Below are positions 1 through 64,000 of a DNA stretch of 64,000 nt, one piece after another. Below the pieces are notes generated by a model that had not been told where the DNA came from, searched no databases, and was given only the letters and a program-made list of their open reading frames with translations. The position numbers and the translations under genes were made by a program. The stretch comes from Arenicola marina (taxonomy: Eukaryota; Annelida; Polychaeta; Arenicolidae), in assembly GCA_964019135.1 (NCBI GenBank), contig CAXHSH010000322.1, positions 62,001 through 126,000 of the forward strand. The letters are read 5' to 3'. Positions within the stretch are counted from its first letter, which is position 1, and each line of letters starts with the position of its first letter.

Positions 1-161
1 CTTCGTGTAGTATATCCTTATGAAAGCGAATGTTTTAAGCAGTATATCGCTCGTACCGATTGTTTTGAGCAGTATGTCGCTCGTACCGCTTGTTTTGGGA
101 AGTAGGACACTGGAATCTGGTGTGTTTCCCCAGTATGTCGCTAAAACCGAGTGTGTTTTAC

Positions 162-463
162 AGTATATCGCTATAACCGAGTGTTATGTGTAATATATCC
201 TTAACACAGAGTGTTTTGAGTAGTATATCGTTAGAACCGAGTGTTTTGGTTAATAAAATGATCGAACCATATGTGTTTGTGTTGTGTATCTCTAAAGCCG
301 AGTGATTTGTAGAGTATGCCGATATAACTAAGTGTTTGATGGAGTATATCCCTAAAAGAGAGTGTTTTGAGTAGCATATCGCTCGTATCGCTTGTTTTAG
401 GAAGTAGAACACTGGAATCTGGCGTGTTTCCCCAGTATGTCGCTAAAACCGAGTGTGTTTTAC
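162..463. repeat. Reference short HOR (S, 302 bp, 10 monomers)
   Basis: Clean example of the short unit. Monomers are A 162-191, B 192-221, C 222-251, D 252-282 (31 bp), E 283-312, F 313-342, G 343-372, H 373-402, I 403-433 (31 bp) and J 434-463. The lengths sum to 302. H begins like monomer K (cgctcgta) and ends like monomer R (gcttgtttt), so it looks like a K/R fusion. D and E depart most from the general consensus. The same order recurs in about 61 short-type intervals in the window. Confidence 0.95.
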
Positions 464-1790
464 AGTATATCGCTATAACCGAGTGTTATGTGTAATATAT
501 CCTTAACACAGAGTGTTTTGAGTAGTATATCGTTAGAATCGAGTGTTTTCGTTAATAAAATGATCGAATCATGTGTGTTTGTGTTGTGTATCTCTAAAGC
601 CGAGTGATTTGTAGAGTATGCCGCTATAACTAAGTGTTTGATGGAGTATATCCCTAAAAGAGAGTGTTTTGAGTAGTATATCGCTCGTACCGAGTGTTTT
701 GAGCAGTATATCCCTCGTACCGAGTGTTTTGGGAAGTAGAATACTGGAATCTGGTGTGTTTCCCTAGTATGTGGCTAAAGCCGAGTGTTTGTACAGTATA
801 TCCCTATAACCGAGTACTTCGTGTAGTATATCCTTATGAAAGCGAATGTTTTAAGCAGTATATCGCTCGTACCGATTGTTTTGAGCAGTATGTCGCTCGT
901 ACCGCTTGTTTTGGAAGTAGGACACTGGAATCTGGTGTGTTTCCCCAGTATGTCGCTAAAACCGAGTGTGTTTTACAGTATATCGCTATAACCGAGTGTT
1001 ATGTGTAATATATCCTTAACACAGTGTTTTGAGTAGTATATCGTTAGAACCGAGTGTTTTGGTTAATAAAATGATCGAACCATATGTGTTTGTGTTGTGT
1101 ATCTCTAAAGCCGAGTGATTTGTAGAGTATGCCGATGTAACTAAGTGTTTGATGGAGTATATCCCTAAAAGAGAGTGTTTTGAGTAGCATATCGCTCGTA
1201 TCGCTTGTTTTAGGAAGTAGAACACTGGAATCTGGCGTGTTTCCCCAGTATGTCGCTAAAACCGAGTGTGTTTTACAGTATATCGCTAAAACCGAGTGTT
1301 ATGTGTAATATATCCTTAACACAGAGTGTTTTGAGTAGTAGATCGTTAGAATCGAGTGTTTTCGTTAATAAAATGATCGAATCATGTGTGTTTGTGTTGT
1401 GTATCTCTAAAGCCGAGTGATTTGTAGAGTATGCCGCTATAACTAAGTGTTTGATGGAGTATATCCCTAAAAGAGAGTGTTTTGAGTAGTATATCGCTCG
1501 TACCGAGTGTTTTGAGCAGTATATCGCTCGTACCGAGTGTTTTGGGAAGTAGAATACTGGAATCTGGTGTGTTTCCCTAGTATGTGGCTAAAGCCGAGTG
1601 TTTGTACAGTATATCCCTATAATCGACCGCTTCGTGTAGTATATCCTTATAAAAGCGAGTGTTTGAAGCAGTATATCGCTCGTACCGATTGTTTTGAGCA
1701 GTATGCCGCTCGTACCGCTTGTTTTGGGAAGTAAGAAACTGGAATCTGGTGTGTTTCCCCAGTATGTCGCTAAAACCGAGTGTGTTTTAC

Positions 1791-2304
1791 AGTATATCGC
1801 TATAACCGAGTGTTATGTGTAATATATCTATAACACAGAGTGTTTTGAGTAGTATATCGTTAGAACCGAGTGTTTTCGTTAATAAAATGATCGAACCATG
1901 TGTGTTTGTGTTGTGTATCTCTAAAGCCGAGTGATTTGTAGAGTATGCCGCTATAACTAAGTGTTTGATGGAGTATATCCCTAAAAGAGAGTGTTTTGAG
2001 TAGTATATCGCTCGTACCGAGTGTTTTGAGCAGTATATCGCTCGTACCGAGTGTTTTGGGAAGTAGAATACTGGAATCTGGTGTGTTTCCCTAGTATGTC
2101 GCTAAAGCCGAGTGTTTGTACAGTATATCCCTATAACCGAGTGCTTCGTGTAGTATATCCTTATGAAAGCGAATGTTTTAAGCAGTATATCGCTCGTACC
2201 GATTGTTTTGAGCAGTATGTCGCTCGTACCGCTTGTTTTGGGAAGTAGGACACTGGAATCTGGCGTGTTTCCCCAGTATGTCGCTAAAACCGAGTGTGTT
2301 TTAC
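1791..2304. repeat. Reference long HOR, subfamily La (514 bp, 17 monomers)
   Basis: Monomers are A 1791, B 1821, C 1851, D 1881 (31 bp), E 1912, F 1942, G 1972, K 2002, L 2032, M 2062 (31 bp), N 2093 (29 bp), O 2122, P 2152 (32 bp), Q 2184, R 2214, I 2244 (31 bp) and J 2275-2304. Compared with S, H is replaced by K-L-M-N-O-P-Q-R. La is recognised by gtttgtacag in N, atccttatgaaag in P and cagtatgtcgctcg at Q/R. M, N, O and P resemble I, J, A and B respectively, so L carries an internal four-monomer duplication. Confidence 0.95.
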
Positions 2305-3985
2305 AGTATATCGCTATAACCGAGTGTTATGTGTAATATATCCTTAACACAGTGTTTTGAGTAGTATATCGTTAGAATCGAGTGTTTTCGTTTATAAAAT
2401 GATCGAATCATGTGTGTTTGTGTTGTGTATCTCTAAAGCCGAGTGATTTGTAGAGTATGCCGCTATAACTAAGTGTTTGATGGAGTAAATCCCTAAAAGA
2501 GAGTGTTTTGAGTAGTATATCGCTGGTACCGAGTGTTTTGAGCAGTATATCGCTCGTACCGAGTGTTTTGGGAGGTAGAATACTGGAATCTGGTGTGTTT
2601 CCCTAGTATGTCGCTAAAGCCGAGTGTTTGTACAGTATATCCCTATAACCGAGTGCTTCGTGTAGTATATCCTCATGAAAGCGAATGTTTTAAGCAGTAT
2701 ATCGCTCGTACCGATTGTTTTGAGCAGTATGTCGCTCGTACCGCTTGTTTTGGGAAGTAGGACACTGGAATCTGGTGTGTTTCCCCAGTATGTCGCTAAA
2801 ACCGAGTGTGTTTTACAGTATATCGCTATAACCGAGTGTTATTTGTAATATATCCTTAACACAGAGTGTTTTGCGTAGTATATCGTTAGAACCGAGTGTT
2901 TTGATTAATAAAATGATCGAACCATATGTGTTTGTGTTGTGTATCTCTAAAGCCGAGTGATTTGTAGAGTATGCCGATATAACTAAGTGTTTGATGGAGT
3001 ATATCCATAAAAGAGAGTGTTTTGAGTAGCATATCGCTCGTACCGCTTGTTTTGGGAAGTAGGACACTGGAATCTGGCTTGTTTCCCCAGTATGTCGCTA
3101 AAACCGAGTGTGTTTTACAGTATATCGCTATAACCGAGTGTTATGTGTAATATATCCTCAACACAGAGTGTTTTGAGTAGTATATCGTTAGAATCGAGCG
3201 TTTTCGTTAATAAAATGATCGAATCATGTGTGTTTGTGTTGTGTATCTCTAAAGCCGAGTGATTTGTAGAGTATGCCGCTATAACTAAGTGTTTGATGGA
3301 GTAAATCCCTAAAAGAAAGTGTTTTGAGTAGTATATCGCTCGTACCGAGTGTTTTGAGCAGTATATCGCTCGTACCGAGTGTTTTGGGAAGTAGAATACT
3401 GGAATCTGGTGTGTTTCCCTAGTACGTCGCAAAAGCCGAGTGTTTGTACAGTATATCCCTATAACCGACCGCTTCGTGTAGTATATCCTTATAAAAGCGA
3501 ATGTTTGAAGCAGTATATCGCTCGTACCGATTGTTTTGAGCAGTAGGCCGCTCGTACCGCTTGTTTTGGGAAGTAGGACACTGGAATCTCGTGTGTTTCC
3601 CCAGTATGTCACTAAAACCGAGTGTGTTTTACAGTATATCGCTATAACCGAGTGTTATGTGTAATATATCCTTAACACAGAGTGTTTTGAGTAGTATATT
3701 GTTAGAACCGAGTGTTTTCGTTAATAAAATGATCGAACCATGTGTGTTTGTGTTGTGTATCTCTAAAGCCGAGTGATTTGTAGAGTATGCCGCTATAACT
3801 AAGTGTTTGATGGAGTATATCCCTAAAAGAGAGTGTTTTGAGTAGTATATCGCTCGTACCGAGTGTTTTGAGCAGTATATCGCTCGTACCGAAGGTTTTG
3901 GGCAGTAGAATACTGGAATCTGGTGTGTTTCCCTAGTATGTCGCTAAAGCCGAGTGTTTGTACAGTATATCCCTATAACCGAGTG

Positions 3986-6610
3986 CTTCGTGTAGTATAT
4001 CCTTATGAAAGCGAATGTTTTAAGCAGTATATCGCTCGTACCGATTGTTTTGGGAAGTAGGACACTGGAATCTGGCGTGTTTCCCCAGTATGTCGCTAAA
4101 ACCGAGTGTGTTTTACAGTATATCGCTATAACCGAGTGTTATGTGTAATATATCCTTAACACAGAGTGTTTTGAGTAGTATATCGTTAGAACCGAGTGTT
4201 TTGGTTAATAAAATGATCGAACCATATGTGTTTGTGTTGTGTATCTCTAAAGCCGAGTGATTTGTAGAGTATGCCGATATAACTAAGTGTTTGATGGAGT
4301 ATATCCCTAAAAGAGAGTGTTTTGAGTAGCATATCGCTCGTATCGCTTGTTTTAGGAAGTAGAACACTGGAATCTGGCGTGTTTCCCCAGTATGTCGCTA
4401 AAACCGAGTGTGTTTTACAGTATATCGCTATAACCGAGTGTTATGTGTAATATATCCTTAACACAGAGTGTTTTGAGTAGTATATCGTTAGAATCGAGTG
4501 TTTTCGTTAATAAAATGATCGAATCATGTGTGTTTGTGTTGTGTATCTCTAAAGCCGAGTGATTTGTAGAGTATGCCGCTATAACTAAGTGTTTGATGGA
4601 GTATATCCCTAAAAGAGAGTGTTTTGAGTAGTATATCGCTCGTAACGAGTGTTTTGAGCAGTATATCCCTCGTACCGAGTGTTTTGGGAAGTAGAATACT
4701 GGAATCTGGTGTGTTTCCCTAGTATGTGGCTAAAGCCGAGTGTTTGTACAGTATATCCCTATAACCGAGTGCTTCGTGTAGTATATCCTTATGAAAGCGA
4801 ATGTTTTAAGCAGTATATCGCTCGTACCGATTGTTTTGAGCAGTATGTCGCTCGTACCGCTTGTTTTGGAAGTAGGACACTGGAATCTGGTGTGTTTCCC
4901 CAGTATGTCGCTAAAACCGAGTGTGTTTTACAGTATATCGCTATAACCGAGTGTTATGTGTAATATATCCTTAACACAGTGTTTTGAGTAGTATATCGTT
5001 AGAACCGAGTGTTTTGGTTAATAAAATGATCGAACCATATGTGTTTGTGTTGTGTATCTCTAAAGCCGAGTGATTTGTAGAGTATGCCGATGTAACTAAG
5101 TGTTTGATGGAGTATATCCCTAAAAGAGAGTGTTTTGAGTAGCATATCGCTCGTATCGCTTGTTTTAGGAAGTAGAACACTGGAATCTGGCGTGTTTCCC
5201 CAGTATGTCGCTAAAACCGAGTGTGTTTTACAGTATATCGCTATAACCGAGTGTTATGTGTAATATATCCTTAACACAGAGTGTTTTGAGTAGTAGATCG
5301 TTAGAATCGAGTGTTTTCGTTAATAAAATGATCGAATCATGTGTGTTTGTGTTGTGTATCTCTAAAGCCGAGTGATTTGTAGAGTATGCCGCTATAACTA
5401 AGTGTTTGATGGAGTATATCCCTAAAAGAGAGTGTTTTGAGTAGTATATCGCTCGTACCGAGTGTTTTGAGCAGTATATCGCTCGTACCGAGTGTTTTGG
5501 GAAGTAGAATACTGGAATCTGGTGTGTTTCCCTAGTATGTGGCTAAAGCCGAGTGTTTGTACAGTATATCCCTATAATCGACCGCTTCGTGTAGTATATC
5601 CTTATAAAAGCGAGTGTTTGAAGCAGTATATCGCTCGTACCGATTGTTTTGAGCAGTATGCCGCTCGTACCGCTTGTTTTGGGAAGTAAGAAACTGGAAT
5701 CTGGTGTGTTTCCCCAGTATGTCGCTAAAACCGAGTGTGTTTTACAGTATATCGCTATAACCGAGTGTTATGTGTAATATATCTATAACACAGAGTGTTT
5801 TGAGTAGTATATCGTTAGAACCGAGTGTTTTCGTTAATAAAATGATCGAACCATGTGTGTTTGTGTTGTGTATCTCTAAAGCCGAGTGATTTGTAGAGTA
5901 TGCCGCTATAACTAAGTGTTTGATGGAGTATATCCCTAAAAGAGAGTGTTTTGAGTAGTATATCGCTCGTACCGAGTGTTTTGAGCAGTATATCGCTCGT
6001 ACCGAGTGTTTTGGGAAGTAGAATACTGGAATCTGGTGTGTTTCCCTAGTATGTCGCTAAAGCCGAGTGTTTGTACAGTATATCCCTATAACCGAGTGCT
6101 TCGTGTAGTATATCCTTATGAAAGCGAATGTTTTAAGCAGTATATCGCTCGTACCGATTGTTTTGAGCAGTATGTCGCTCGTACCGCTTGTTTTGGGAAG
6201 TAGGACACTGGAATCTGGCGTGTTTCCCCAGTATGTCGCTAAAACCGAGTGTGTTTTACAGTATATCGCTATAACCGAGTGTTATGTGTAATATATCCTT
6301 AATACAGTGTTTTGAGTAGTATATTGTTAGAACCGAGTGTTTTCGTTAATAAAATGATCGAACCATGTGTGTTTGTGTTGTGTATCTCTAAAGCCGAGTG
6401 ATTTGTAGAGTATGCCGCTATAACTAAGTGTTTGATGGAGTATATCCCTAAAAGAGAGTGTTTTGAGTAGTATATCGCTCGTACCGAGTGTTTTGAGCAG
6501 TATATCGCTCGTACCGAAGGTTTTGGGCAGTAGAATACTGGAATCTGGTGTGTTTCCCTAGTATGTCGCTAAAGCCGAGTGTTTGTACAGTATATCCCTA
6601 TAACCGAGTG
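3986..6610. repeat. Superblock 2 of the left triplication (shortened, 2625 bp)
   Basis: D anchors are at 4207, 4509, 5020, 5322, 5836 and 6348 (S L S L L L). It matches superblock 1 at +3955 up to about 6310. It then jumps to match superblock 1 at +2625, from the atattgttag marker at 6321. The missing 1330 bp equals 514 + 514 + 302, that is two L and one S units lost in register. The left flank has the two-base-short B monomer of the 2350 region, and the right flank has the marker found at 3696. The junction is therefore a clean crossover between different HOR copies. Confidence 0.9.
4026..4055. repeat. Q/R fusion monomer in a 16-monomer L unit
   Basis: The left half is Q (accgatt) and the right half is R (gttttggga), so one 30-bp monomer is lost. 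The host L unit is 3633-4116 (484 bp). Identical fusions sit at 6651-6680, 10606-10635 and 13418-13447, at shifts of 2625, 6580 and 9392. They mark the end of each left superblock and of its 2812-bp-shifted copy. Confidence 0.9.
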
Positions 6611-10565: not shown

Positions 10566-10696
10566 CTTCGTGTCGTATATCCTTATGAAAGCGAATGTTT
10601 TAAGCAGTATATCGCTCGTACCGATTGTTTTGGGAAGTAGGACACTGGAATCTGGCGTGTTTCCCCAGTATGTCGCTAAAACCGAGTGTGTTTTAC

Positions 10697-12208: not shown

Positions 12209-12419
12209 AGTATATCGCTATAACCGAGTGTTATGTGTAATAAATTCTTAACACAGAGTGTTTTGAGTAGTATATCGTTAGAATCGAGTGTTTTCGTTAA
12301 TAAAATGATCGAATCATGTGTGTTTGTGTTGTGTATCTCTAAAGCCGAGTGATTTGTAGGGTATGCCGCTATAAATAAGTGTTTGATGGAGTAAATCCCT
12401 AAAAGAGAGTGTTTTGAGT

Positions 12420-40700: not shown

Positions 40701-40758
40701 ATATCGCTCGTACCACTTGTTTTGGGAAGTAGGACACTGGAATCGGGCTTGTTTCCCC
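37735..40758. repeat. S/L alternating HOR region b, with one S-S pair
   Basis: D anchors are at 37825, 38127, 38641, 38943, 39245, 39760, 40062 and 40577. The intervals are 302, 514, 302, 302, 515, 302 and 515. Two S units are adjacent at 38943-39546. The gagcagcatatcg and gtccttcg markers near 39392 and 39507 reappear at 53662 and 53776 (shift 14270), linking this segment to the right flank of the 6590-bp duplication. Confidence 0.88.
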
Positions 40759-43700
40759 AGTATGTCGCTAAAACCGAGTGTGTTTTACAGTATATCGCTA
40801 TAACCGAGTGTTATGTGTAATATATCCTTAACACAGTGTTTTGAGTAGTATATCGTTAGAACCGAGTGTTTTCGTTAATAAAATGATCGAATCATGTGTG
40901 TTTGTGTTGTGTATCTCTAAAGCCGAGTGATTTGTAGAGTATGCCGCTATAACTAAGTGTTTGATGGAGTAAATCCCTAAAAGAGAGTGTTTTGAGTAGT
41001 ATATCGCTCGTACCGAGTGTTTTGAGCAGTATATCGCTCGTACCGAGTGTTTTGGGAAGTAGAATACTGGAATCTGGTGTGTTTCCCTAGTATGTCGCTA
41101 AAGCCGAGTGTTTGTACAGTATATCCCTATAACCGAGTGCTTCGTGTAGTATATCCTTATGAAAGCGAATGTTTTAAGCAGTATATCGCTCGTACCGATT
41201 GTTTTGAGCAGTATGTCGCTCGTACCGCTTGTTTTGGGAAGTAGGACACTGGAATCTGGTGTGTTTCCCCAGTATGTCGCTAAAACCGAGTGTGTTTTAC
41301 AGTATATCGCTATAACCGAGTGTTATTTGTAATATATCCTTAACACAGTGTTTTGAGTAGTATATCGTTAGAACCGAGTGTTTTGGTTAATAAAATGATC
41401 GAACCATATGTGTTTGTGTTGTGTATCTCTAAAGCCGAGTGATTTGTAGAGTATGCCGATATAACTAAGTGTTTGATGGAGTATATCCCTAAAAGAGAGT
41501 GTTTTGAGTAGCATATCGCTCGTACCGCTTGTTTTGGGAAATAGAACACTGGAATCTGGTGTGTTTCCCCAGTATGTCGCTAAAACCGAGTGTGTTTTAC
41601 AGTATATCGGTATAACCGAGTGTTATGTGTAATATATCCTTAACACATAGTGTTTTGAGTAGTATATCGTTAGAATCGAGTGTTTTCGTTAATAAAATGA
41701 TCGAATCATGTGTGTTTGTGTTGTGTATCTCTAAAGCCGAGTGATTTGTAGAGTATGCCGCTATAACTAGGTGTTTGATGGAGTAAATCCCTAAAAGAAA
41801 GTGTTTTGGGTAGTATATCGCTCGTACCGAGTGTTTTGAGCAGTATATCGCTCGTACCGAGTGTTTTGGGAGGCATAATACTGGAATCTGGTGTGTTTCC
41901 CTAGTATGTCGCTAAAGCCGAGTGTTTATACAGTATGTCCCTATAACCGAGTGCTTCGTGTAGTACATTCTTATAAAAGCGAGTGTTTTAAGCATTATAT
42001 CGCTCGTACCGATTGTTTTGAGCAGTAATGTCGCTCGTACCGCTTGTTTTGGGAAGTAGGACACTGGAATCTCGTGTGTTTTCCTAGTATGTCGCTAAAA
42101 CCGAGTGTGTTTTACAGTATATCGCTATAACCGAGGGCTATATGTAGTATTTCCTTAAAACATAGTGTTTTGAGTAGTATATCGTTAGAACCGAGTGTTT
42201 TCGTTAATAAAATGATCGAATCATGTGTGTTTGTGTTGTGTATCTCTAAAGCCGAGTGATTTGTAGAGTATGCCGCTATAACTAAGTGTTTGATGGAGTA
42301 AATCCCTAAAAGAGAGTGTTTTGAGTAGTATATCGCTCGTACCGAGTGTTTTGAGCAGTATATCGCTCGTACCGAGTGTTTTGGGAAGTAGAATACTGGA
42401 ATCTGGTGTGTTTCCCTAGTATGTCGCTAAAGCCGAGCGTTCGTACAGTATATCCCTATAACCGAGTGCTTCGTGTAGTACATTCTTATAAAAGCGAATG
42501 TTTTAAGCATTATATCGCTCGTACCGATTGTTTTGAGCAGTAATGTCGCTCGTACCGCTTGTTTTGGGAAGTAGGACACTGGAATCTCGTGTGTTTTCCT
42601 AGAATGTCGCTAAAACCGAGTGTGTTTTACAGTATATCGCTATAACCGAGGGCTATGTGTAGTATATCCTTAAAACATAGTGTTTTGAGTAGTATATCGT
42701 TAGAACCGAGTGTTTTCGTTAATAAAATGATCGAATCATGTGTGTTTGTGTTGTGTATCTCTAAAGCCGAGTGATTTGTAGAGCATGCCGCTATAACTAT
42801 GTGTTTGATGGAGTATATCCCTAAAAGAGAGTGTTTTGAGTAGTATATCGCTCGTACCGAGTGTTTTGGGAAGTAGAATACTGGAATCTGGTGTGTTTCC
42901 CTAGTATGTCGCTAAAGCCGAGTGTTTGTACAGTATATCCCTATAACCGAGTGCTTCGTGTAGTATATCCTTATGAAAGCGAATGTTTTAAGCAGTATAT
43001 CGCTCGTACCGATTGTTTTGAGCAGTATGTCGCTCGTACCGCTTGTTTTGGGAAGTAGGACACTGGAATCTGGTGTGTTTCCCCAGTATGTCGCTAAAAC
43101 CGAGTGTGTTTTACAGTATATCGCTATAACCGAGTGTTATGTGTAATATATCCTTAACACAGAGTGTTTTGAGTAGTATATCGTTAGAACCGAGTGTTTT
43201 GGTTAATAAAATGATCGAACCATGTGTGTTTGTGTTGTGTATCTCTAAAGCCGAGTGATTTGTAGAGTATGCCGATATAACTAAGTGTTTGATGGAGTAT
43301 ATCCCTAAAAGCGAGTGTTTTGAGTAGCATATCGCTCGTACCACTTGTTTTGGGAAGTAGGACACGGGAATCTGGCTTGTTTCCCCAGTATGTCGCTAAA
43401 ACCGAGTGTGTTTTACAGTATATCGCTATAACCGAGTGTTATGTGTAATATATCCTTAACACAGAGTGTTTTGAGTAGTATATCGTTAGAACCGAGTGTT
43501 TTCGTTAATAAAATGATCGAATCATGTGTGTTTGTGTTGTGTATCTCTAAAGCCGAGTGATTTGTAGAGTATGCCGCTATAACTAAGTGTTTGATGGAGT
43601 AAATCCCTAAAAGAGAGTGTTTTGAGTAGTATATCGCTCGTACCGAGTGTTTTGAGCAGTATATCGCTCGTACCGAGTGTTTTGGGAAGTAGAATACTGG

Positions 43701-46700
43701 AATCTGGTGTGTTTCCCTAGTATGTCGCTAAAGCCGAGTGTTTGTACAGTATATCCCTAAAACCGAGTGCTTCGTGTAGTATATCCTTATAAAAGCGAAT
43801 GTTTTAAGCATTATATCGCTCGTACCGATTGTTTTGAGCAGTAATGTCGCTCGTACCGCTTGTTTTGGGAAGTAGGACACTGGAATCTCGTGTGTTTCCC
43901 CAGTATGTCGCTAAAACCGAGTGTGTTTTACAGTATATCGCTATAACCGAGTGTTATGTGTAATATATCCTTAACACAGAGTGTTTTGAGTAGTATATCG
44001 TTAGAATCGAGTGTTTTCGTTAATTAAATGATCGAATCATGTGTGTTTGTGTTGTGTATCTCTAAAGCCGAGTGATTTGTAGAGTATGCCGCTATAACTA
44101 AGTGTTTGATGGAGTAAATCCCTAAAAAAGAGTGTTTTGAGTAGTATATCGCTCGTACCGGGTGTTTTGGGAGGTAGAATACTGAAATCTGGTGTGTTTC
44201 CCTAGTATGTCGCTAAAGCCGAGTGTTTATACAGTATGTCCCTATAACCGAGTGCTTCGTGTAGTACATTCTTATAAAAGCGAATGTTTTAAGCATTATA
44301 TCGCTCGTACCGATTGTTTTGAGCAGTAATGTCGCTCGTACCGCTTGTTTTCGGAAGTAGGACACTGGAATCTCATGTGTTTTCCTAGTATGTCGCTAAA
44401 ACCGAGTGTGTTTTACAGTATATCGCTATAACCGAGTGTTATTTGTAATATATCCTTAACACAGAGTGTTTTGCGTAGTATATCGTTAGAACCGAGTGTT
44501 GTGGTTAATAAAATGATCGAACCATATGTGTTTGTGTTGTGTATCTCTAAAGCCGAGTGATTTGTAGAGTATGCCGATATAACTAAGTGTTTGATGAAGT
44601 ATATCCCTAAAAGAGAGTGTTTTGAGTAGCATATCGCTCGTACCGAGTGTTTTGGGAAGTAGAACACTGGAATCTGGTGTGTTTCCCCAGTATGTCGCTA
44701 AAACCGAGTGTGTTTTACAGTATATCGCTATAACCGAGTGTTATTTGTAATATATCCTTAACACAGTGTTTTGAGTAGTATATCGTTAGAACCGAGTGTT
44801 TTGGTTAATAAAATGATCGAACCATATGTGTTTGTGTTGTGTATCTCTAAAGCCGAGTGATTTGTAGAGTATGCCGATATAACTAAGTGTTTGATGGAGT
44901 ATATCCCTAAAAGAGAGTGTTTTGAGTAGCATATCGCTCGTACCGCTTGTTTTGGGAAGTAGAACACTGGAATCTGGTGTGTTTCCCCAGTATGTCGCTA
45001 AAACCGAGTGTGTTTTACAGTATATCGGTATAACCGAGTGTTATGTGTAATATATCCTTAACACATAGTGTTTTGAGTAGTATATCGTTAGAATCGAGTG
45101 TTTTCGTTAATAAAATGATCGAATCATGTGTGTTTGTGTTGTGTATCTCTAAAGCCGAGTGATTTGTAGAGTATGCCGCTATAACTAAGTGTTTGATGGA
45201 GTAAATCCCTAAAAGAAAGTGTTTTGGGTAGTATATCGCTCGTACCGAGTGTTTTGAGCAGTATATCGCTCGTACCGAGTGTTTTGGGAGGCAGAATACT
45301 GGAATCTGGTGTGTTTCCCTAGTTGTCGCTAAAGCCGAGTGTTTATACAGTATGTCCCTATAACCGAGTGCTTCGTGTAGTACATTCTTATAAAAGCGAG
45401 TGTTTTAAGCATTATATCGCTCGTACCGATTGTTTTGAGCAGTAATGTCGCTCGTACCGCTTGTTTTGGGAAGTAGGACACTGGAATCTCGTGTGTTTTC
45501 CTAGTATGTCGCTAAAACCGAGTGTGTTTTACAGTATATCGCTATAACCGAGGGCTATATGTAGTATATCCTTAAAACATAGTGTTTTGAGTAGTATATC
45601 GTTAGAACCGAGTGTTTTCGTTAATAAAATGATCGAATCATGTGTGTTTGTGTTGTGTATCTCTAAAGCCGAGTGATTTGTAGAGTATGCCGCTATAACT
45701 AAGTGTTTGATGGAGTAAATCCCTAAAAGAGAGTGTTTTGAGTAGTATATCGCTCGTACCGAGTGTTTTGAGCAGTATATCGCTCGTACCGAGTGTTTTG
45801 GGAAGTAGAATACTGGAATCTGGTGTGTTTCCCTAGTATGTCGCTAAAGCCGAGTGTTCGTACAGTATATCCCTATAACCGAGTGCTTCGTGTAGTTCAT
45901 TCTTATGAAAGCGAATGTTTTAAGCATTATATCGCTCGTACCGATTGTTTTGAGCAGTAATGTCGCTCGTACCGCTTGTTTTGGGAAGTAGGACACTGGA
46001 ATCTCGTGTGTTTTCCTAGAATGTCGCTAAAACCGAGTGTGTTTTACAGTATATCGCTATAACCGAGGGCTATGTGTAGTATATCCTTAAAACATAGTGT
46101 TTTGAGTAGTATATCGTTAGAACCGAGTGTTTTCGTTAATAAAATGATCGAATCATGTGTGTTTGTGTTGTGTATCTCTAAAGCCGAGTGATTTGTAGAG
46201 TATGCCGCTATAACTATGTGTTTCATGGAGTATATCCCTAAAAGAGAGTGTTTTGAGTAGTATATCGCTCGTACCGAGTGTTTTGAGCAGTATATCGCTC
46301 GTACCGAGTGTTTTGGGAAGTAGAATACTGGAATCTGGTGTGTTTCCCTAGTATGTCGCTAAAGCCGAGTGTTTGTACAGTATATCCCTATAACCGAGTG
46401 CTTCGTGTAGTATATCCTTATGAAAGCGAATGTTTTAAGCAGTATATCGCTCGTACCGATTGTTTTGAGCAGTATGTCGCTCGTACCGCTTGTTTTGGGA
46501 AGTAGGACACTGGAATCTGGTGTGTTTCCCCAGTATGTCGCTAAAACCGAGTGTGTTTTACAGTATATCGCTATAACCAAGTGTTATGTGTAATATATCC
46601 TTAACACAGAGTGTTTTGAGTAGTATATCGTTAGAACCGAGTGTTTTGGTTAATAAAATGATCGAACCATGTGTGTTTGTGTTGTGTATCTCTAAAGCCG

Positions 46701-47348
46701 AGTGATTTGTAGAGTATGCCGATATAACTAAGTGTTTGATGAAGTATATCCCTAAAAGCGAGTGTTTTGAGTAGCATATCGCTCGTACCACTTGTTTTGG
46801 GAAGTAGGACACGGGAATCTGGCTTGTTTCCCCAGTATGTCGCTAAAACCGAGTGTGTTTTACAGTATATCGCTATAACCGAGTGTTATGTGTAATATAT
46901 CCTTAACACAGAGTGTTTTGAGTAGTATATCGTTAGAACCGAGTGTTTTCGTTAATAAAATGATCGAATCATGTGTGTTTGTGTTGTGTATCTCTAAAGC
47001 CGAGTGATTTGTAGAGTATGCCGCTATAACTAAGTGTTTGATGGAGTAAATCCCTAAAAGAGAGTGTTTTGAGTAGTATATCGCTCGTACCGAGTGTTTT
47101 GAGCAGTATATCGCTCGTACCGAGTGTTTTGGGAAGTAGAATACTGGAATCTGGTGTGTTTCCCTAGTATGTCGCTAAAGCCGAGTGTTTGTACAGTATA
47201 TCCCTAAAACCGAGTGCTTCGTGTAGTATATCCTTATAAAAGCGAATGTTTTAAGCATTATATCGCTCGTACCGATTGTTTTGAGCAGTAATGTCGCTCG
47301 TACCGCTTGTTTTGGGAAGTAGGACACTGGAATCTCGTGTGTTTCCCC
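40759..47348. repeat. 6590-bp superblock, copy 1
   Basis: D anchors are at 40877, 41389, 41691, 42206, 42721, 43205, 43507, 44022, 44507, 44807, 45109, 45623, 46138, 46652 and 46954. Anchors up to 44807 plus 6590, and those after the copy-specific indels plus 6561, land exactly on the copy 2 anchors. The block is itself two related halves: 41389 to 44807 is 3418 bp, and 44807 to 47979 is 3172 bp. Copy-1-only states include gggaaatag near 41537, aactaggtg near 41766, aggcataat near 41871 and a missing base at agttgtcgc near 45321. Confidence 0.93.
42842..42871. repeat. K/L loss in an La unit, present in both 6590-bp superblocks
   Basis: G passes to a single monomer that ends gggaagtag, giving a 484-bp interval. 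The same state is found at 49432-49461 (+6590), so the loss predates the superblock duplication. M here is the normal actggaatc spelling, unlike the tgaaatc lineage. Confidence 0.87.
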
Positions 47349-50300
47349 AGTATGTCGCTAAAACCGAGTGTGTTTTACAGTATATCGCTATAACCGAGTG
47401 TTATGTGTAATATATCCTTAACACAGTGTTTTGAGTAGTATATCGTTAGAACCGAGTGTTTTCGTTAATAAAATGATCGAATCATGTGTGTTTGTGTTGT
47501 GTATCTCTAAAGCCGAGTGATTTGTAGAGTATGCCGCTATAACTAAGTGTTTGATGGAGTAAATCCCTAAAAGAGAGTGTTTTGAGTAGTATATCGCTCG
47601 TACCGAGTGTTTTGAGCAGTATATCGCTCGTACCGAGTGTTTTGGGAAGTAGAATACTGGAATCTGGTGTGTTTCCCTAGTATGTCGCTAAAGCCGAGTG
47701 TTTGTACAGTATATCCCTATAACCGAGTGCTTCGTGTAGTATATCCTTATGAAAGCGAATGTTTTAAGCAGTATATCGCTCGTACCGATTGTTTTGAGCA
47801 GTATGTCGCTCGTACCGCTTGTTTTGGGAAGTAGGACACTGGAATCTGGTGTGTTTCCCCAGTATGTCGCTAAAACCGAGTGTGTTTTACAGTATATCGC
47901 TATAACCGAGTGTTATTTGTAATATATCCTTAACACAGTGTTTTGAGTAGTATATCGTTAGAACCGAGTGTTTTGGTTAATAAAATGATCGAACCATATG
48001 TGTTTGTGTTGTGTATCTCTAAAGCCGAGTGATTTGTAGAGTATGCCGATATAACTAAGTGTTTGATGGAGTATATCCCTAAAAGAGAGTGTTTTGAGTA
48101 GCATATCGCTCGTACCGCTTGTTTTGGGAAGTAGAACACTGGAATCTGGTGTGTTTCCCCAGTATGTCGCTAAAACCGAGTGTGTTTTACAGTATATCGG
48201 TATAACCGAGTGTTATGTGTAATATATCCTTAACACATAGTGTTTTGAGTAGTATATCGTTAGAATCGAGTGTTTTCGTTAATAAAATGATCGAATCATG
48301 TGTGTTTGTGTTGTGTATCTCTAAAGCCGAGTGATTTGTAGAGTATGCCGCTATAACTAAGTGTTTGATGGAGTAAATCCCTAAAAGAAAGTGTTTTGGG
48401 TAGTATATCGCTCGTACCGAGTGTTTTGAGCAGTATATCGCTCGTACCGAGTGTTTTGGGAGGCAGAATACTGGAATCTGGTGTGTTTCCCTAGTATGTC
48501 GCTAAAGCCGAGTGTTTATACAGTATGTCCCTATAACCGAGTGCTTCGTGTAGTACATTCTTATAAAAGCGAGTGTTTTAAGCATTATATCGCTCGTACC
48601 GATTGTTTTGAGCAGTAATGTCGCTCGTACCGCTTGTTTTGGGAAGTAGGACACTGGAATCTCGTGTGTTTTCCTAGTATGTCGCTAAAACCGAGTGTGT
48701 TTTACAGTATATCGCTATAACCGAGGGCTATATGTAGTATTTCCTTAAAACATAGTGTTTTGAGTAGTATATCGTTAGAACCGAGTGTTTTCGTTAATAA
48801 AATGATCGAATCATGTGTGTTTGTGTTGTGTATCTCTAAAGCCGAGTGATTTGTAGAGTATGCCGCTATAACTAAGTGTTTGATGGAGTAAATCCCTAAA
48901 AGAGAGTGTTTTGAGTAGTATATCGCTCGTACCGAGTGTTTTGAGCAGTATATCGCTCGTACCGAGTGTTTTGGGAAGTAGAATACTGGAATCTGGTGTG
49001 TTTCCCTAGTATGTCGCTAAAGCCGAGCGTTCGTACAGTATATCCCTATAACCGAGTGCTTCGTGTAGTACATTCTTATAAAAGCGAATGTTTTAAGCAT
49101 TATATCGCTCGTACCGATTGTTTTGAGCAGTAATGTCGCTCGTACCGCTTGTTTTGGGAAGTAGGACACTGGAATCTCGTGTGTTTTCCTAGAATGTCGC
49201 TAAAACCGAGTGTGTTTTACAGTATATCGCTATAACCGAGGGCTATGTGTAGTATATCCTTAAAACATAGTGTTTTGAGTAGTATATCGTTAGAACCGAG
49301 TGTTTTCGTTAATAAAATGATCGAATCATGTGTGTTTGTGTTGTGTATCTCTAAAGCCGAGTGATTTGTAGAGCATGCCGCTATAACTATGTGTTTGATG
49401 GAGTATATCCCTAAAAGAGAGTGTTTTGAGTAGTATATCGCTCGTACCGAGTGTTTTGGGAAGTAGAATACTGGAATCTGGTGTGTTTCCCTAGTATGTC
49501 GCTAAAGCCGAGTGTTTGTACAGTATATCCCTATAACCGAGTGCTTCGTGTAGTATATCCTTATGAAAGCGAATGTTTTAAGCAGTATATCGCTCGTACC
49601 GATTGTTTTGAGCAGTATGTCGCTCGTACCGCTTGTTTTGGGAAGTAGGACACTGGAATCTGGTGTGTTTCCCCAGTATGTCGCTAAAACCGAGTGTGTT
49701 TTACAGTATATCGCTATAACCGAGTGTTATGTGTAATATATCCTTAACACAGAGTGTTTTGAGTAGTATATCGTTAGAACCGAGTGTTTTGGTTAATAAA
49801 ATGATCGAACCATGTGTGTTTGTGTTGTGTATCTCTAAAGCCGAGTGATTTGTAGAGTATGCCGATATAACTAAGTGTTTGATGGAGTATATCCCTAAAA
49901 GCGAGTGTTTTGAGTAGCATATCGCTCGTACCACTTGTTTTGGGAAGTAGGACACGGGAATCTGGCTTGTTTCCCCAGTATGTCGCTAAAACCGAGTGTG
50001 TTTTACAGTATATCGCTATAACCGAGTGTTATGTGTAATATATCCTTAACACAGAGTGTTTTGAGTAGTATATCGTTAGAACCGAGTGTTTTCGTTAATA
50101 AAATGATCGAATCATGTGTGTTTGTGTTGTGTATCTCTAAAGCCGAGTGATTTGTAGAGTATGCCGCTATAACTAAGTGTTTGATGGAGTAAATCCCTAA
50201 AAGAGAGTGTTTTGAGTAGTATATCGCTCGTACCGAGTGTTTTGAGCAGTATATCGCTCGTACCGAGTGTTTTGGGAAGTAGAATAGTGGAATCTGGTGT

Positions 50301-53300
50301 GTTTCCCTAGTATGTCGCTAAAGCCGAGTGTTTGTACAGTATATCCCTAAAACCGAGTGCTTCGTGTAGTATATCCTTATAAAAGCGAATGTTTTAAGCA
50401 TTATATCGCTCGTACCGATTGTTTTGAGCAGTAATGTCGCTCGTACCGCTTGTTTTGGGAAGTAGGACACTGGAATCTCGTGTGTTTCCCCAGTATGTCG
50501 CTAAAACCGAGTGTGTTTTACAGTATATCGCTATAACCGAGTGTTATGTGTAATATATCCTTAACACAGAGTGTTTTGAGTAGTATATCGTTAGAATCGA
50601 GTGTTTTCGTTAATTAAATGATCGAATCATGTGTGTTTGTGTTGTGTATCTCTAAAGCCGAGTGATTTGTAGAGTATGCCGCTATAACTAAGTGTTTGAT
50701 GGAGTAAATCCCTAAAAAAGAGTGTTTTGAGTAGTATATCGCTCGTACCGGGTGTTTTGGGAGGTAGAATACTGAAATCTGGTGTGTTTCCCTAGTATGT
50801 CGCTAAAGCCGAGTGTTTATACAGTATGTCCCTATAACCGAGTGCTTCGTGTAGTACATTCTTATAAAAGCGAATGTTTTAAGCATTATATCGCTCGTAC
50901 CGATTGTTTTGAGCAGTAATGTCGCTCGTACCGCTTGTTTTCGGAAGTAGGACACTGGAATCTCATGTGTTTTCCTAGTATGTCGCTAAAACCGAGTGTG
51001 TTTTACAGTATATCGCTATAACCGAGTGTTATTTGTAATATATCCTTAACACAGAGTGTTTTGCGTAGTATATCGTTAGAACCGAGTGTTGTGGTTAATA
51101 AAATGATCGAACCATATGTGTTTGTGTTGTGTATCTCTAAAGCCGAGTGATTTGTAGAGTATGCCGATATAACTAAGTGTTTGATGGAGTATATCCCTAA
51201 AAGAGAGTGTTTTGAGTAGCATATCGCTCGTACCGAGTGTTTTGGGAAGTAGAACACTGGAATCTGGTGTGTTTCCCCAGTATGTCGCTAAAACCGAGTG
51301 TGTTTTACAGTATATCGCTATAACCGAGTGTTATTTGTAATATATCCTTAACACAGTGTTTTGAGTAGTATATCGTTAGAACCGAGTGTTTTGGTTAATA
51401 AAATGATCGAACCATATGTGTTTGTGTTGTGTATCTCTAAAGCCGAGTGATTTGTAGAGTATGCCGATATAACTAAGTGTTTGATGGAGTATATCCCTAA
51501 AAGAGAGTGTTTTGAGTAGCATATCGCTCGTACCGCTTGTTTTGGGAAGTAGAACACTGGAATCTGGTGTGTTTCCCCAGTATGTCGCTAAAACCGAGTG
51601 TGTTTTACAGTATATCGGTATAACCGAGTGTTATGTGTAATATATCCTTAACACATAGTGTTTTGAGTAGTATATCGTTAGAATCGAGTGTTTTCGTTAA
51701 TAAAATGATCGAATCATGTGTGTTTGTGTTGTGTATCTCTAAAGCCGAGTGATTTGTAGAGTATGCCGCTATAACTAAGTGTTTGATGGAGTAAATCCCT
51801 AAAAGAAAGTGTTTTGGGTAGTATATCGCTCGTACCGAGTGTTTTGGGAGGCAGAATACTGGAATCTGGTGTGTTTCCCTAGTATGTCGCTAAAGCCGAG
51901 TGTTTATACAGTATGTCCCTATAACCGAGTGCTTCGTGTAGTACATTCTTATAAAAGCGAGTGTTTTAAGCATTATATCGCTCGTACCGATTGTTTTGAG
52001 CAGTAATGTCGCTCGTACCGCTTGTTTTGGGAAGTAGGACACTGGAATCTCGTGTGTTTTCCTAGTATGTCGCTAAAACCGAGTGTGTTTTACAGTATAT
52101 CGCTATAACCGAGGGCTATATGTAGTATATCCTTAAAACATAGTGTTTTGAGTAGTATATCGTTAGAACCGAGTGTTTTCGTTAATAAAATGATCGAATC
52201 ATGTGTGTTTGTGTTGTGTATCTCTAAAGCCGAGTGATTTGTAGAGTATGCCGCTATAACTAAGTGTTTGATGGAGTAAATCCCTAAAAGAGAGTGTTTT
52301 GAGTAGTATATCGCTCGTACCGAGTGTTTTGAGCAGTATATCGCTCCTACCGAGTGTTTTGGGAAGTAGAATACTGGAATCTGGTGTGTTTCCCTAGTAT
52401 GTCGCTAAAGCCGAGTGTTCGTACAGTATATCCCTATAACCGAGTGCTTCGTGTAGTTCATTCTTATGAAAGCGAATGTTTTAAGCATTATATCGCTCGT
52501 ACCGATTGTTTTGAGCAGTAATGTCGCTCGTACCGCTTGTTTTGGGAAGTAGGACACTGGAATCTCGTGTGTTTTCCTAGAATTTCGCTAAAACCGAGTG
52601 TGTTTTACAGTATATCGCTATAACCGAGGGCTATGTGTAGTATATCCTTAAAACATAGTGTTTTGAGTAGTATATCGTTAGAACCGAGTGTTTTCGTTAA
52701 TAAAATGATCGAATCATGTGTGTTTGTGTTGTGTATCTCTAAAGCCGAGTGATTTGTAGAGTATGCCGCTATAACTATGTGTTTCATGGAGTATATCCCT
52801 AAAAGAGAGTGTTTTGAGTAGTATATCGCTCGTACCGAGTGTTTTGAGCAGTATATCGCTCGTACCGAGTGTTTTGGGAAGTAGAATACTGGAATCTGGT
52901 GTGTTTCCCTAGTATGTCGCTAAAGCCGAGTGTTTGTACAGTATATCCCTATAACCGAGTGCTTCGTGTAGTATATCCTTATGAAAGCGAATGTTTTAAG
53001 CAGTATATCGCTCGTACCGATTGTTTTGAGCAGTATGTCGCTCGTACCGCTTGTTTTGGGAAGTAGGACACTGGAATCTGGTGTGTTTCCCCAGTATGTC
53101 GCTAAAACCGAGTGTGTTTTACAGTATATCGCTATAACCGGGTGTTATGTGTAATATATCCTTAACACAGAGTGTTTTGAGTAGTATATCGTTAGAACCG
53201 AGTGTTTTGGTTAATAAAATGATCGAACCATGTGTGTTTGTGTTGTGTATCTCTAAAGCCGAGTGATTTGTAGAGTATGCCGATATAACTAAGTGTTTGA

Positions 53301-60200: not shown

Positions 60201-61373
60201 ACACTGGAATCTGGTGTGTTTCCCCAATATGTCGCTAAAACCGAGTGTGTTTTACAGTATATCGATATAACCGAGTGTTATGTGTAATATATCCTTAACA
60301 CAGAGTGTTTTGAGTAGTATATCGTTAGAATCGAGTGTTTTCGTTAATAAAATGATCGAATCATGTGTGTTTGTGTTGTGTATCTCTAAAGCCCAGTGAT
60401 TTGTAGAGTATGCCGATATAACTAAGTGTTTGATAGAGTATATCCCTAAAAGCGAGTATTTTGAGTAGCATATCGCTCGTACCACTTGTTTTGGGAAGTA
60501 GGACACTGGAATCTGGTGTGTTTTCCTAGTATGTCGCTAAAACCGAGTGTGTTTTACAGTATATCGCTATAACCGAGGGTTTTGTGTAGTATATCCTTAA
60601 AACATAGTGTTTTGAGTAGTATATCGTTAGAACCGAGTGTTTTCGTTAATAAAATGATCGAATCATGTGTGTTTGTGTTGTGTATCTCTAAAGCCGAGTG
60701 ATTTGAAAAGTATGCCGCTATAACTATATGTTTGATGGAGTATATCCCTAAAAGAGAGTGTTTTGAGTAATATATCGCTCGTACCGAGTGTTTTGAGCAG
60801 TATATCGCTCGTACCGAGTGTTTTGGGAAGTAGAATACTGGAATCTGGTGTGTTTCCCTAGTATGTCGGTAAAGCCGTGTGTTTGTACAGTATATCCCTA
60901 TAACCGAGTGCTTCGTGTAGTATATCCTTATGAAAGCGAATGTTTTAAGCAGTATATCGCTCGTACCGATTGTTTTGAGCAGTATGTCGCTCGTACAGCT
61001 TGTTTTGGGAAGTAGGACACTGGAATCTGGTGTGTTTCCCCAGTATGTCGCTAAAACCGAGTGTGTTTTACAGTATATCGCTATAACCGAGTGTTATTTG
61101 TAATATATCCTTAACACAGAGTGTTTTGCGTAGTATATCGTTAGAACCGCGTGTTTTGGTTAATAAAATGATCGAACCATATGTGTTTGTGATGTGTATC
61201 TCTAAAGCCGAGTGATTTGTAGAGTATGCCGATATAACTAAGTGTTTGATGGAGTATATCCCCAAAAGAGAGTGTTTTGAGTAGCATATCGCTCGTACCG
61301 CTTGTTTTGGGAAGTAGAACACTGGAATCTTGTGTGTTTCCCCAGTATGTCGCTAAAACCGAGTGTGTTTTAC
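57204..61373. repeat. S-S-L (1118 bp) superrepeat region
   Basis: D anchors are at 57294, 57596, 58110, 58412, 58714, 59228, 59530, 60044, 60346, 60648 and 61162. The intervals are 302, 514, 302, 302, 514, 302, 514, 302, 302, 514 and 302. S-S-L (1118 bp) therefore recurs alongside S-L (816 bp). Local markers are gagggttttgtg in A, gatttgaag in E and gtgttttgcgtag in B. All long units here are La, with no Lb. Confidence 0.9.
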
Positions 61374-64000
61374 AGTATATCGCTATAACCGAGTGTTATG
61401 TGTAATATATCCTTAACACAGAGTGTTTTGAGTAGTATATCGTTAGAATCGAGTGTTTTCGTTAATAAAATGATCGAATCATGTGTGTTTGTGTTGTGTA
61501 TCTCTAAAGCCGAGTGATTTGTAGAGTATGCCGCTATAACTAAGTGTTTGATGGAGTAAATCCCTAAAAGAGAGTGTTTTGAGTAGTATATCGCTCGTAC
61601 CGAGTGTTTTGAGCAGTATATCGCTCGTACCGAGTGTTTTGGGAGGTAGAATACTGGAATCTGGTGTGTTTCCCTAGTATGTCGCTAAAGCCGAGTGTTT
61701 ATACAGTATGTCCCTATAACCGAGTGCTTCGTGTAGTACATTCTTATAAAAGCGAATGTTTTAAGCATTATATCGCTCGTACCGATTGTTTTGAGCAGTA
61801 ATGTCGCTCGTACCGCTTGTTTTGGGAAGTAGGACACTGGAATCTCGTGTGTTTCCCCAGTATGTCGCTAAAACCGAGTGTGTTTTACAGTATATCGCTA
61901 TAACCGAGTGTTATGTGTAATATATCCTTAACACAGAGTGTTTTGAGTAGTATATCGTTAGAACCGAGTGTTTTGGTTAATAAAATGATCGAACCATGTG
62001 TGTTTGTGTTGTGTATCTCTAAAGCCGAGTGATTTGTAGAGTATGCCGATATAACTAAGTGTTTGATGGAGTATATCCCTAAAAGCGAGTGTTTTGAGTA
62101 GCATATCGCTCGTACCACTTGTTTTGGGAAGTAGGACACTGGAATCTGGCTTGTTTCCCCAGTATGTCGCTAAAACCGAGTGTGTTTTACAGTATATTGC
62201 TATAACCGAGTGTTATGTGTAATATATCCTTAACACAGAGTGTTTTGAGTAGTATATCGTTAGAATCGAGTGTTTTCGTTAATAAAATGATCGAATCATG
62301 TGTGTTTGTGTTGTGTATCTCTAAAGCCGAGTGATTTGAAGAGTATGCCGCTATAACTAAGTGTTTGATGGAGTAAATCCCTAAAAGAGAGTGTTTTGAG
62401 TAGTATATCGCTCGTACCGAGTGTTTTGAGCAGTATATCGCTCGTACCGAGTGTTTTGGGAAGTAGAATACTGGAATCTGGTGTGTTTCCCTAGTATGTC
62501 GCAAAAGCCGAGTGTTTGTACAGTATATCCCTATAACCGAGTGCTTCGTGTAGTATATCCTTATGAAAGCGAATGTTTTAAGCAGTATATCGCTCGTACC
62601 GATTGTTTTGAGCAGTATGTCGCTCGTACCGCTTGTTTTGGGAAGTAGGACACTGGAATCTGGTGTGTTTCCCCAGTATGTCGCTAAAACCGGGTGTGTT
62701 TTACAGTATATCGCTATAACCGAGTGTTATTTGTAATATATCCTTAACACAGAGTGTTTTGCGTAGTATATCGTTAGAACCGAGTGTTTTGGTTAATAAA
62801 ATGATCGAACCATATGTGTTTGTGTTGTGTATCTCTAAAGCCGAGTGATTTGTAGAGTATGCCGATATAACTAAGTGTTTGATGGAGTATATCCCTAAAA
62901 GAAAGTGTTTTGAGTAGCATATCGCTCGTACCGCTTGTTTTGGGAAGTAGAACACTGGAATCTGGTGTGTTTCCCCAGTATGTCGCTAAAACCGAGTGTG
63001 TTTTACAGTATATCGCTATAACCGAGTGTTATGTGTAATATATCCTTAACACAGAGTGTTTTGAGTAGTATATCGTTAGAATCGAGTGTTTTCGTTAATA
63101 AAATGATCGAATCATGTGTGTTTGTGTTGTGTATCTCTAAAGCCGAGTGATTTGTAGAGTATGCCGCTATAACTAAGTGTTTGATGGAGTAAATCCCTAA
63201 AAGAGAGTGTTTTGAGTAGTATATCGCTCGTACCGAGTGTTTTGAGCAGTATATCGCTCGTACCGAGTGTTTTGGGAGGTAGAATACTGGAATCTGGTGT
63301 GTTTCCCTAGTATGTCGCTAAAGCCGAGTGTTTATACAGTATGTCCCTATAACCGAGTGCTTCGTGTAGTACATTCTTATAAAAGCGAATGTTTTAAGCA
63401 TTATATCGCTCGTACCGATTGTTTTGAGCAGTAATGTCGCTCGTACCACTTGTTTTGGGAAGTAGGACACTGGAATCTGGCGTGTTTCCCCAGTATGTCG
63501 CTAAAACCGAGTGTGTTTTACAGTATATCGCTATAACCGAGGGCTATGTGTAGTATATCCTTAAAACATAATGTTTTGAGTAGTATATCGTTAGAACCGA
63601 GTGTTTTCGTTAATAAAATGATCGAATCATGTGTGTTTGTGTTGTGTATCTCTAAAGCCGAGTGATTTGTAGAGTATTCCGCTATAAATATGTGTTTGAT
63701 GGAGTATATCCCTAAAAGAGAGTGTTTTGAATAGTATATCGCTCGTACCGAGTGTTTTGAGCAGTATGTCGCTCGTACCGCTTGTTTTGGGAAGTAGGAC
63801 ACTGGAATCTGGTGTGTTTCCCCAGTATGTCGCTAAAACCGAGTGTGTTTTACAGTATATCGCTATAACCGAGTGTTATGTGTAATATATCCTTAACACA
63901 GAGTGTTTTGAGTAGTATATCGTTAGAACCGAGTGTTTTGGTTAATAAAATGATCGAACCATGTGTGTTTGTGTTGTGTATCTCTAAAGCCGAGTGATTT
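61374..64000. repeat. S/L alternating HOR region d (cut by window end)
   Basis: D anchors are at 61464, 61979, 62281, 62795, 63097, 63612 and 63944. It alternates Lb, S, La, S, Lb and then an 11-monomer S unit. The sequence stops inside monomer E, so the array continues to the right. Confidence 0.9.
63522..63853. repeat. 11-monomer short HOR (332 bp), K and R unfused, second copy
   Basis: Same A-G, K, R, I, J order as 56872-57203, sharing the gagggctatg A monomer and the gtattccgcta F change. It has a few private single-base differences, such as cataatg in B and tttgaatag in G. Confidence 0.87.

What the first reader, a model, noticed from the sequence alone, without database searches (positions are those of the whole stretch)
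1..64000. Three-tier satellite: 30-bp monomers, 302/514-bp HORs, 2.6-6.6 kb superblocks
Monomer types keep a fixed order over 64 kb. They form two HORs that share A-G and I-J, and runs of HORs are copied again as superblocks. Superblock shifts seen are 2625, 2662, 3114, 3177, 3691, 3955, 5621, 6590 and 11920 bp. Multi-monomer HORs are known from primate alpha satellite. A nested, two-HOR system built on so short a monomer is less familiar to me, and I do not recognise the family.
Basis: partly seen in the sequence, partly recalled or inferred. Interest (0 to 1): 0.7.

Follow-up and report, generated by a model that had tools for sequence, protein, structure and literature searches.

The report
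Short-monomer higher-order satellite in a worm
This stretch is satellite DNA of a known general kind, from what looks like an annelid worm: 30-letter units in a fixed order, grouped into bigger repeats that probably grew by misaligned recombination, with an unproven hint that whole arrays are present at some sites on one chromosome copy and missing on the other.

Summary
The window is non-coding tandem repeat throughout: 2116 monomers of about 30 bp, 17 types, near-fixed order (next-monomer entropy 0.415 bits against 3.84 shuffled). The two units are confirmed (302 bp = 10 monomers, 514 bp = 17), with three corrections. (1) A tier was missed: the units are built from a 5-monomer, 151-bp ancestor. 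(2) The 302-bp unit is most simply the 514-bp unit less 7 monomers (212 bp); its last monomer looks like a fusion of the two monomers at the deletion ends, and the two forms mostly alternate as 816 bp. (3) Superblocks are real duplications (up to 4.55 kb at 99.8%), but each has its own shift, so they are not a regular tier; 2 of 9 claimed shifts were not found by my strict test. The source is an 867-Mb genome with 18 large scaffolds, TTAGGG telomeres and annelid-type mtDNA. The family (very roughly 2.9 Mb) was seen on four chromosome scaffolds and at least eleven unplaced contigs. At two single-copy sites the assembly holds both an array and a no-array version. Best reading: heterochromatic, perhaps (peri)centromeric, satellite evolving by unequal exchange, as in alpha satellite with its ancestral pentamer. 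New member of a known kind.

The parts
1..64000 (+). continuous satellite array; 2116 complete monomers from base 30 on, plus cut ends; 3 ORFs of 150 aa or more, no tRNA, no Rfam match
90..391 (+). first complete 302-bp unit (10-mer GBCJEFDHIA), the proposed deletion form
392..905 (+). first complete 514-bp unit (17-mer GBCJEFDHIA-AKBNMLO)
392..542 (+). pentamer 1 (GBCJE), 151 bp
   Evidence: in-register similarity to the other pentamers; coordinates
543..693 (+). pentamer 2 (FDHIA), 151 bp
724..875 (+). pentamer 3 (KBNML) inside the 7-monomer cassette AKBNMLO (694-905)
362..391 (+). A/O-type fusion monomer at the end of the 302-bp unit, proposed scar of the 7-monomer deletion
90..905 (+). 816-bp composite (10-mer + 17-mer), the commonest alternation
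40704..45256 (+). superblock copy 1, shift 6590
   Evidence: 4553 bp at 99.78% to 47294-51846
47294..51846 (+). superblock copy 2, shift 6590
61..4342 (+). superblock copy 1, shift 6580 (copy 2 at 6641-10922)
   Evidence: 4282 bp at 99.4%
22252..26868 (+). superblock copy 1, shift 11920 (copy 2 at 34172-38788)
   Evidence: 4618 bp at 98.0%

Best explanation
A non-coding satellite DNA family of an annelid genome with nested repeat levels, built and kept similar by unequal exchange between copies. Steps: (1) a 30-bp monomer amplified and diverged; (2) a 5-monomer block (151 bp) became the unit; (3) three diverged copies of that block plus two extra monomers of the fifth class became the 17-mer (514 bp); (4) an exchange between monomer A (position 10) and its relative O (position 17) removed 7 monomers, leaving the 10-mer (302 bp) with an A/O fusion as last monomer; (5) 10-mer and 17-mer were co-amplified, mostly alternating (816 bp); (6) repeated larger exchanges duplicated kilobase blocks with varying shifts. 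Shown from sequence: the layers, the A-before-G monomer type, the duplications, the presence on several chromosomes. Inferred: the order of the steps, unequal exchange as the mechanism, and the role. The likeliest role is passive heterochromatin at or beside centromeres on a subset of chromosomes (about 0.45), else other heterochromatin.
For: Layers: the two halves of the 10-mer are closest in register (sum of edit distances 40, lowest of 120 permutations, mean 51.4); cassette KBNML matches GBCJE (23, lowest of 120, mean 49.2) and FDHIA (39, lowest of 120). Deletion, contig C198 1-206000: A followed by G (end of the 302-bp unit, n=178) starts like A in 163 (GTGTTTTGAGTA), has the O-like last letter C in at least 167, and carries the private TAGCAT in 162; A followed by A (n=280) ends CCGA in 276 and has TAGCAT in 6; O followed by G ends CCGC in 247 of 262. 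One shared private variant points to one event. In the pieces read from C3, C18 and C20 (296 monomers) there are 13 O-G joins and no A-G join, while A-G joins occur on C2 (2), C27 (17), C548 (3) and C198 (178): the 17-mer form is the wider one. Of 132 adjacent complete units in the window 94 are mixed pairs, 31 long-long, 7 short-short. Of 113 non-canonical transitions 73 keep pentamer register, 17.8 expected. Duplications up to 6545 bp at 99.57%. Same monomer types in pieces of C2, C3, C18, C20, C27, C548. One region on each placed chromosome, internal (C2 27.70 of 61.5 Mb; C18 30.65 of 38.4) or near an end (C3 60.26-60.31 of 60.48; C20 from 32.65 to its end at 33.05 Mb), beside N gaps on C2, C18, C20.
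Against: Direction of step 4: the O-like part of the fusion is one letter at the 3' end (the middle is A-like), so a point mutation could mimic it; the cross-chromosome support is a small sample (296 monomers). Exchange model: by distinct kinds only 5 of 11 non-canonical transitions are in register, one kind (L-G, 49 copies) makes up most of the 73, and 31 of 113 are out of register; gene conversion or replication slippage would leave similar traces. Centromere part: exact matches were listed on only 4 of 18 chromosome scaffolds (cut listings) and at least 11 array contigs are unplaced; no CENP-B box excess (0 exact, 5 one-mismatch matches, 7.78 expected); at two sites the array abuts single-copy DNA with a no-array version at the same base, and near C12 coding-like sequence lies within about 4 kb (by eye), unlike a deep centromere.
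Confidence: 0.8

Rival explanations
1. The arrays are subtelomeric or scattered heterochromatic blocks with no centromere role.
For: C20 ends in array and C3 carries it within about 220 kb of the scaffold end; exact matches listed on only 4 of 18 chromosome scaffolds; array edges lie in apparently ordinary single-copy DNA on C12 and C2.
Against: C2, C18 and the C12 fork lie far from scaffold ends (45%, 80%, 68% of scaffold length); on C2 and C3 exact matches were listed only at 27.70 and 60.26-60.31 Mb, not at their TTAGGG-bearing starts.
Confidence: 0.4
2. Heterozygous (present/absent) insertion of satellite arrays at single-copy sites: the array copied itself into new places by joining at short matches, for example through extrachromosomal circles or template switching.
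For: C12: the flank on C548 is 99.12% identical over 1133 bp up to the base where one goes into array and the other goes on without it; C2: 99.89% over 2777 bp, likewise. Short partial matches between flank and the array's own upstream sequence at both joints (ACG; AGCG.C.T, read by eye, no chance control).
Against: The other side of each insertion was not found: the right-hand stretches searched (1410 bp from C12, 1011 bp from C2) occur once in full (1 match; 1 full-length match among 82, the rest short pieces of one minisatellite; only 40 of 72 candidates were scored). Chimeric reads or contig ends could give the same picture.
Confidence: 0.3
3. Assembly artefact: joints and superblocks come from chimeric reads or from collapsed or duplicated graph paths.
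For: Array pieces end at N gaps and contig ends; C2 carries the same 2.8-kb flank twice around a gap, as a misplaced second haplotype would.
Against: Does not explain monomer order, pentamer layer or A-G joins, which recur across C198, C27 and C548; the long duplicated blocks differ by 0.1-3%, so they are not plain copies.
Confidence: 0.2
4. The repeat is a coding or RNA-gene array.
For: 30 bp is a multiple of three, and three 165-aa minus-strand ORFs exist.
Against: Only 3 ORFs of at least 150 aa in 64 kb, open ends included; 302 and 514 are not multiples of three, so no frame persists; no Rfam match at gathering score and no tRNA.
Confidence: 0.02

Closest known systems
Human alpha satellite of chromosomes 17 and X (D17Z1, DXZ1)
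   Same: Diverged monomers in fixed order form a HOR; [quoted passage not shown] Chromosome 15 has cascading HORs with repeated monomer types and alternating 13- and 21-monomer copies summing to 34 (PMC11050224, passages).
   Different: 171-bp monomer and no sequence relation tested or expected; alpha satellite is shown to be centromeric, this one is not.
Bovine/cervid satellite I (1.715 family) with 31-bp subrepeats
   Same: A unit of about 30 bp inside a longer unit (PMC2760882 passages: muntjac satellite I about 1 kb with internal 31-bp subrepeats).
   Different: Other taxon; sequence not compared; no alternating long unit and deletion form that I recall.
Mouse major satellite
   Same: 234-bp unit of four sub-repeats (PMC8191757 passages); their 28/30-bp parts are recalled.
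   Different: One unit, pericentric on every mouse chromosome; no 17-type order (recall).
HORs across animals and plants (Melters et al. 2013)
   Same: HOR in 76 of 171 species with Sanger data, short monomers more often detected; units with truncated monomers in switchgrass (PMC4053949 passages).
   Different: That survey rarely saw units of three or more monomers; the term annelid has no occurrence in its main text.

Membership tests
Satellite DNA with higher-order repeats | long non-coding tandem array | tested here: met
   64 kb without break, and the 208,000 bp read of the 216,942-bp contig C198
Satellite DNA with higher-order repeats | diverged monomers in fixed order, types much more alike within than between | tested here: met
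   type consensuses differ by 3-17 edits, copies of a type by 0.4-2.2 on average; entropy 0.415 against 3.84
Satellite DNA with higher-order repeats | located in heterochromatin | not testable with these tools
   no chromatin or FISH data
Centromeric satellite | CENP-A (CenH3) chromatin | not testable with these tools
   no ChIP data
Centromeric satellite | one site per chromosome on most chromosomes | tested here: inconclusive
   one region each on 4 of 18 chromosome scaffolds in cut listings, plus a fork site on C12; at least 11 unplaced array contigs
Centromeric satellite of the CENP-B box type | CENP-B box (motif recalled) | tested here: not met
   window only: 0 exact, 5 one-mismatch matches, 7.78 expected
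Alpha satellite | 171-bp primate monomer | tested here: not met
   30-bp monomer; TTAGGG genome with annelid-type mtDNA
Bovine satellite I / mouse major satellite | sequence similarity to their units | not tested
   no eukaryote repeat library was available; mtDNA is not mammalian in code or gene order

The most novel reading that the evidence does not exclude
Whole satellite arrays of this family are heterozygous, present/absent insertions at single-copy sites (at least C12:29.046 Mb and C2:27.70 Mb), so the family is colonising new loci in an annelid, possibly seeding new centromere sites, with both the filled and the empty allele caught in one genome.
Probability: 0.3. Interest if true: 0.6.

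Novelty: new member of a known kind. Interest (0 to 1): 0.36.

Why it matters
It gives a readable history, from sequence alone, of how a higher-order satellite can be assembled (30 bp to pentamer to 17-mer to shortened form to duplicated blocks) in a phylum for which my two searches listed no satellite HOR paper, and it resembles the pentamer history reported for human chromosomes 17 and X. If the two array/no-array forks are real, they offer paired filled and empty sites for asking how satellite arrays move.

Tried and rejected
Coding and RNA-gene readings: no persistent frame, no Rfam or tRNA match. CENP-B box: no excess. Superblocks as a regular third tier: no common shift. Literature: eight searches (listings) and eight papers opened by term search only, passages seen; PMC11371463 (annelid genomes) has no occurrence of centromer, satellite or tandem repeat in its main text, and PMC5139131 none of microhomolog, eccDNA or extrachromosomal. 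Naming the species: none of the 30 records listed of 232 fits 867 Mb with 18 chromosomes, so it stays open. Genome searches for repeats score only part of the candidates and the listings are cut, so no full list of array sites could be made.

Not done: Repbase/Dfam comparison, read-level checks, FISH, ChIP.
Full report
What was checked. The window is G000:C198:62001-126000 of an 867-Mb assembly with 762 contigs. Autocorrelation peaks at 30, 151, 302, 816 and 514 bp. A wrap-around alignment to one monomer cut it into 2116 monomers, clustered into 17 types plus two single outliers. The type string is nearly deterministic: in the window every type except A, B, C, G and L has one follower apart from at most two exceptions; next-monomer entropy is 0.415 bits against 3.843 after shuffling. 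1977 of 2116 monomers lie in complete 10-mers (63), 17-mers (67) or 16-mer variants (13) (there types P and Q were counted with B and J).

The 10-mer GBCJEFDHIA is two diverged pentamers, and the 17-mer is three pentamers plus two further monomers of the fifth class: GBCJE FDHIA A KBNML O. In-register pairing is the best of all 120 orders in each of three comparisons, and the 151-bp lag is the second strongest in the window. Across C198 1-206000 (6811 monomers, none further than 8 edits from a known type), 73 of 113 unusual transitions keep pentamer register against 17.8 expected; 31 do not and 9 are fifth-class to fifth-class. By kinds it is 5 of 11, and one kind (L-G, 49 copies) carries most of the 73, so this test alone is weak.

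The 302-bp unit as a deletion form. Where A is followed by G (n=178), the monomer starts like A (163), ends in the O-type letter C (at least 167), and 162 carry one private variant that only 6 of 280 A-before-A monomers carry. In the window itself 48 of 58 such monomers show both the A-type start and the last letter C, 6 only the last letter and 4 only the start. This is what one exchange between A and O, seven monomers apart (212 bp), would leave; the O-like part is one letter, so it is not proof. In the pieces read from C3, C18 and C20 there are 13 O-G joins and no A-G join in 296 monomers, whereas C2, C27, C548 and C198 have both, which makes the 17-mer the wider and probably older form. 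Of 132 neighbouring complete units in the window 94 are mixed, 31 long-long and 7 short-short; independence would give about 22 short-short (by hand), though block duplication makes the counts dependent.

Superblocks. Gapped self-comparison of C198 1-206000 gave 3351 direct matches at 97% or more; inverted matches were dropped before counting. The longest are 6545 bp (99.57%, shift 10070), 6433 bp (99.46%, 10698) and 6311 bp (99.22%, 178831); in the window 4618 bp (97.96%, 11920), 4553 bp (99.78%, 6590) and 4282 bp (99.42%, 6580). Under the strict ungapped test 7 of 9 claimed shifts are present, 2662 and 5621 absent. No common shift emerges, so these read as separate duplications.

Where it lies. 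The 208,000 bp read of C198 (216,942 bp) is array; C27 (315 kb) is array in each of the four stretches read, and C548 (78 kb) in the three read except its first 1.13 kb. A 26-letter piece of monomer D with up to 3 mismatches has 4010 + 2588 matches and none for the reversed control; at one per 442 bp in C198 this is about 2.9 Mb, 0.34% of the assembly, a rough figure. Exact matches on chromosome scaffolds were listed only on C2, C3, C18 and C20, those of a second variant on C3, C18 and C20; further contigs are C30, C55, C60 and C225, C391, C458, C733, C755, with C27, C198 and C548 eleven in all. Listings are cut; absence elsewhere is shown only for exact matches on scaffolds earlier in the list, taking the list to run in contig order. 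Pieces at C3, C18 and the end of C27 carry more diverged monomers and another module; the C18 edge also turns round in orientation, and copies of its module at 95-96% recur on C20, C27, C733, C18 and C3.

Source organism. 18 scaffolds of 33-77 Mb, 9789 pattern matches for TTAGGG against 55 for TTAGG, and a 15.9-kb mitochondrial contig read with code 5, with long frames in the order cox1-cox2-atp8-cox3-nad6-cytb-atp6-nad5-nad4L-nad4-nad1-nad3-nad2 on one strand (cox1 by profile, the others named by eye). That order is, by recall, the common annelid one; PMC8924214 (passages) says one order is common among Errantia and Sedentaria but the passages do not spell it out. I therefore call it an annelid, species open.

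The forks. C548 starts with 1133 bp that match C12 at 99.12% up to one base, after which C548 is array and C12 is not; no array 12-mer occurs in the two C12 stretches read. On C2 the same 2777-bp flank occurs twice around a gap at 99.89%, once running into array and once into other DNA at the same base. The right-hand stretches searched were found in full once each. Both could be heterozygous arrays, or assembly or read chimeras; reads are needed.

Function. Nothing points to a product. AA/AT/TA/TT steps peak every 10 bp or so (2 of 300 column shuffles reach the observed contrast, the shuffles using the first 1500 thirty-base monomers), fitting three helical turns per monomer, and 151 bp is close to a nucleosome core; both are suggestive only. 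No CENP-B box excess. I put (peri)centromeric heterochromatin at about 0.45 and other heterochromatin at about 0.4.

Comparison. It works like alpha satellite HORs, bovine/cervid satellite I and mouse major satellite; membership of those families was not met or not tested. Papers were seen as passages only. My searches for annelid or polychaete satellite work listed nothing on such a system (9 papers, none by title; 0 papers), in a library that lacks most subscription journals.

Noticed in passing
C548:1-1133 (L026) against C12:29044891-29046022 (L030): Same flank, one copy running into the array and the other not; 99.12% identity up to the joint.
   Followed up: partly
C2:27697001-27700700 (L079, L046) and C2:27701501-27708500 (L047, L078): A 2777-bp flank repeated at 99.89% around a gap of about 200 N, once followed by array, once by other DNA.
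   Followed up: partly
L046 1-1300: A second tandem repeat of about 30 bp (GC-rich, different by eye) lies next to the array on C2.
   Followed up: no
L030 3060-3840: Another tandem repeat of about 30 bp, seen by eye, lies about 0.5 kb right of the C12 fork.
   Followed up: no
L049 from about 975: The C3 array ends against sequence that looks by eye like a retroelement; described only, not searched.
   Followed up: no
C10:15997462-15997931: A patch of TTAGG repeats (53 overlapping matches) inside a genome whose telomere motif is TTAGGG.
   Followed up: no
C225 around 194-202 kb, 487-492 kb and 604-614 kb: A large unplaced contig with several separate array patches in both orientations.
   Followed up: no
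window and C198: AA/AT/TA/TT steps recur about every 10 bp, three times per monomer.
   Followed up: partly
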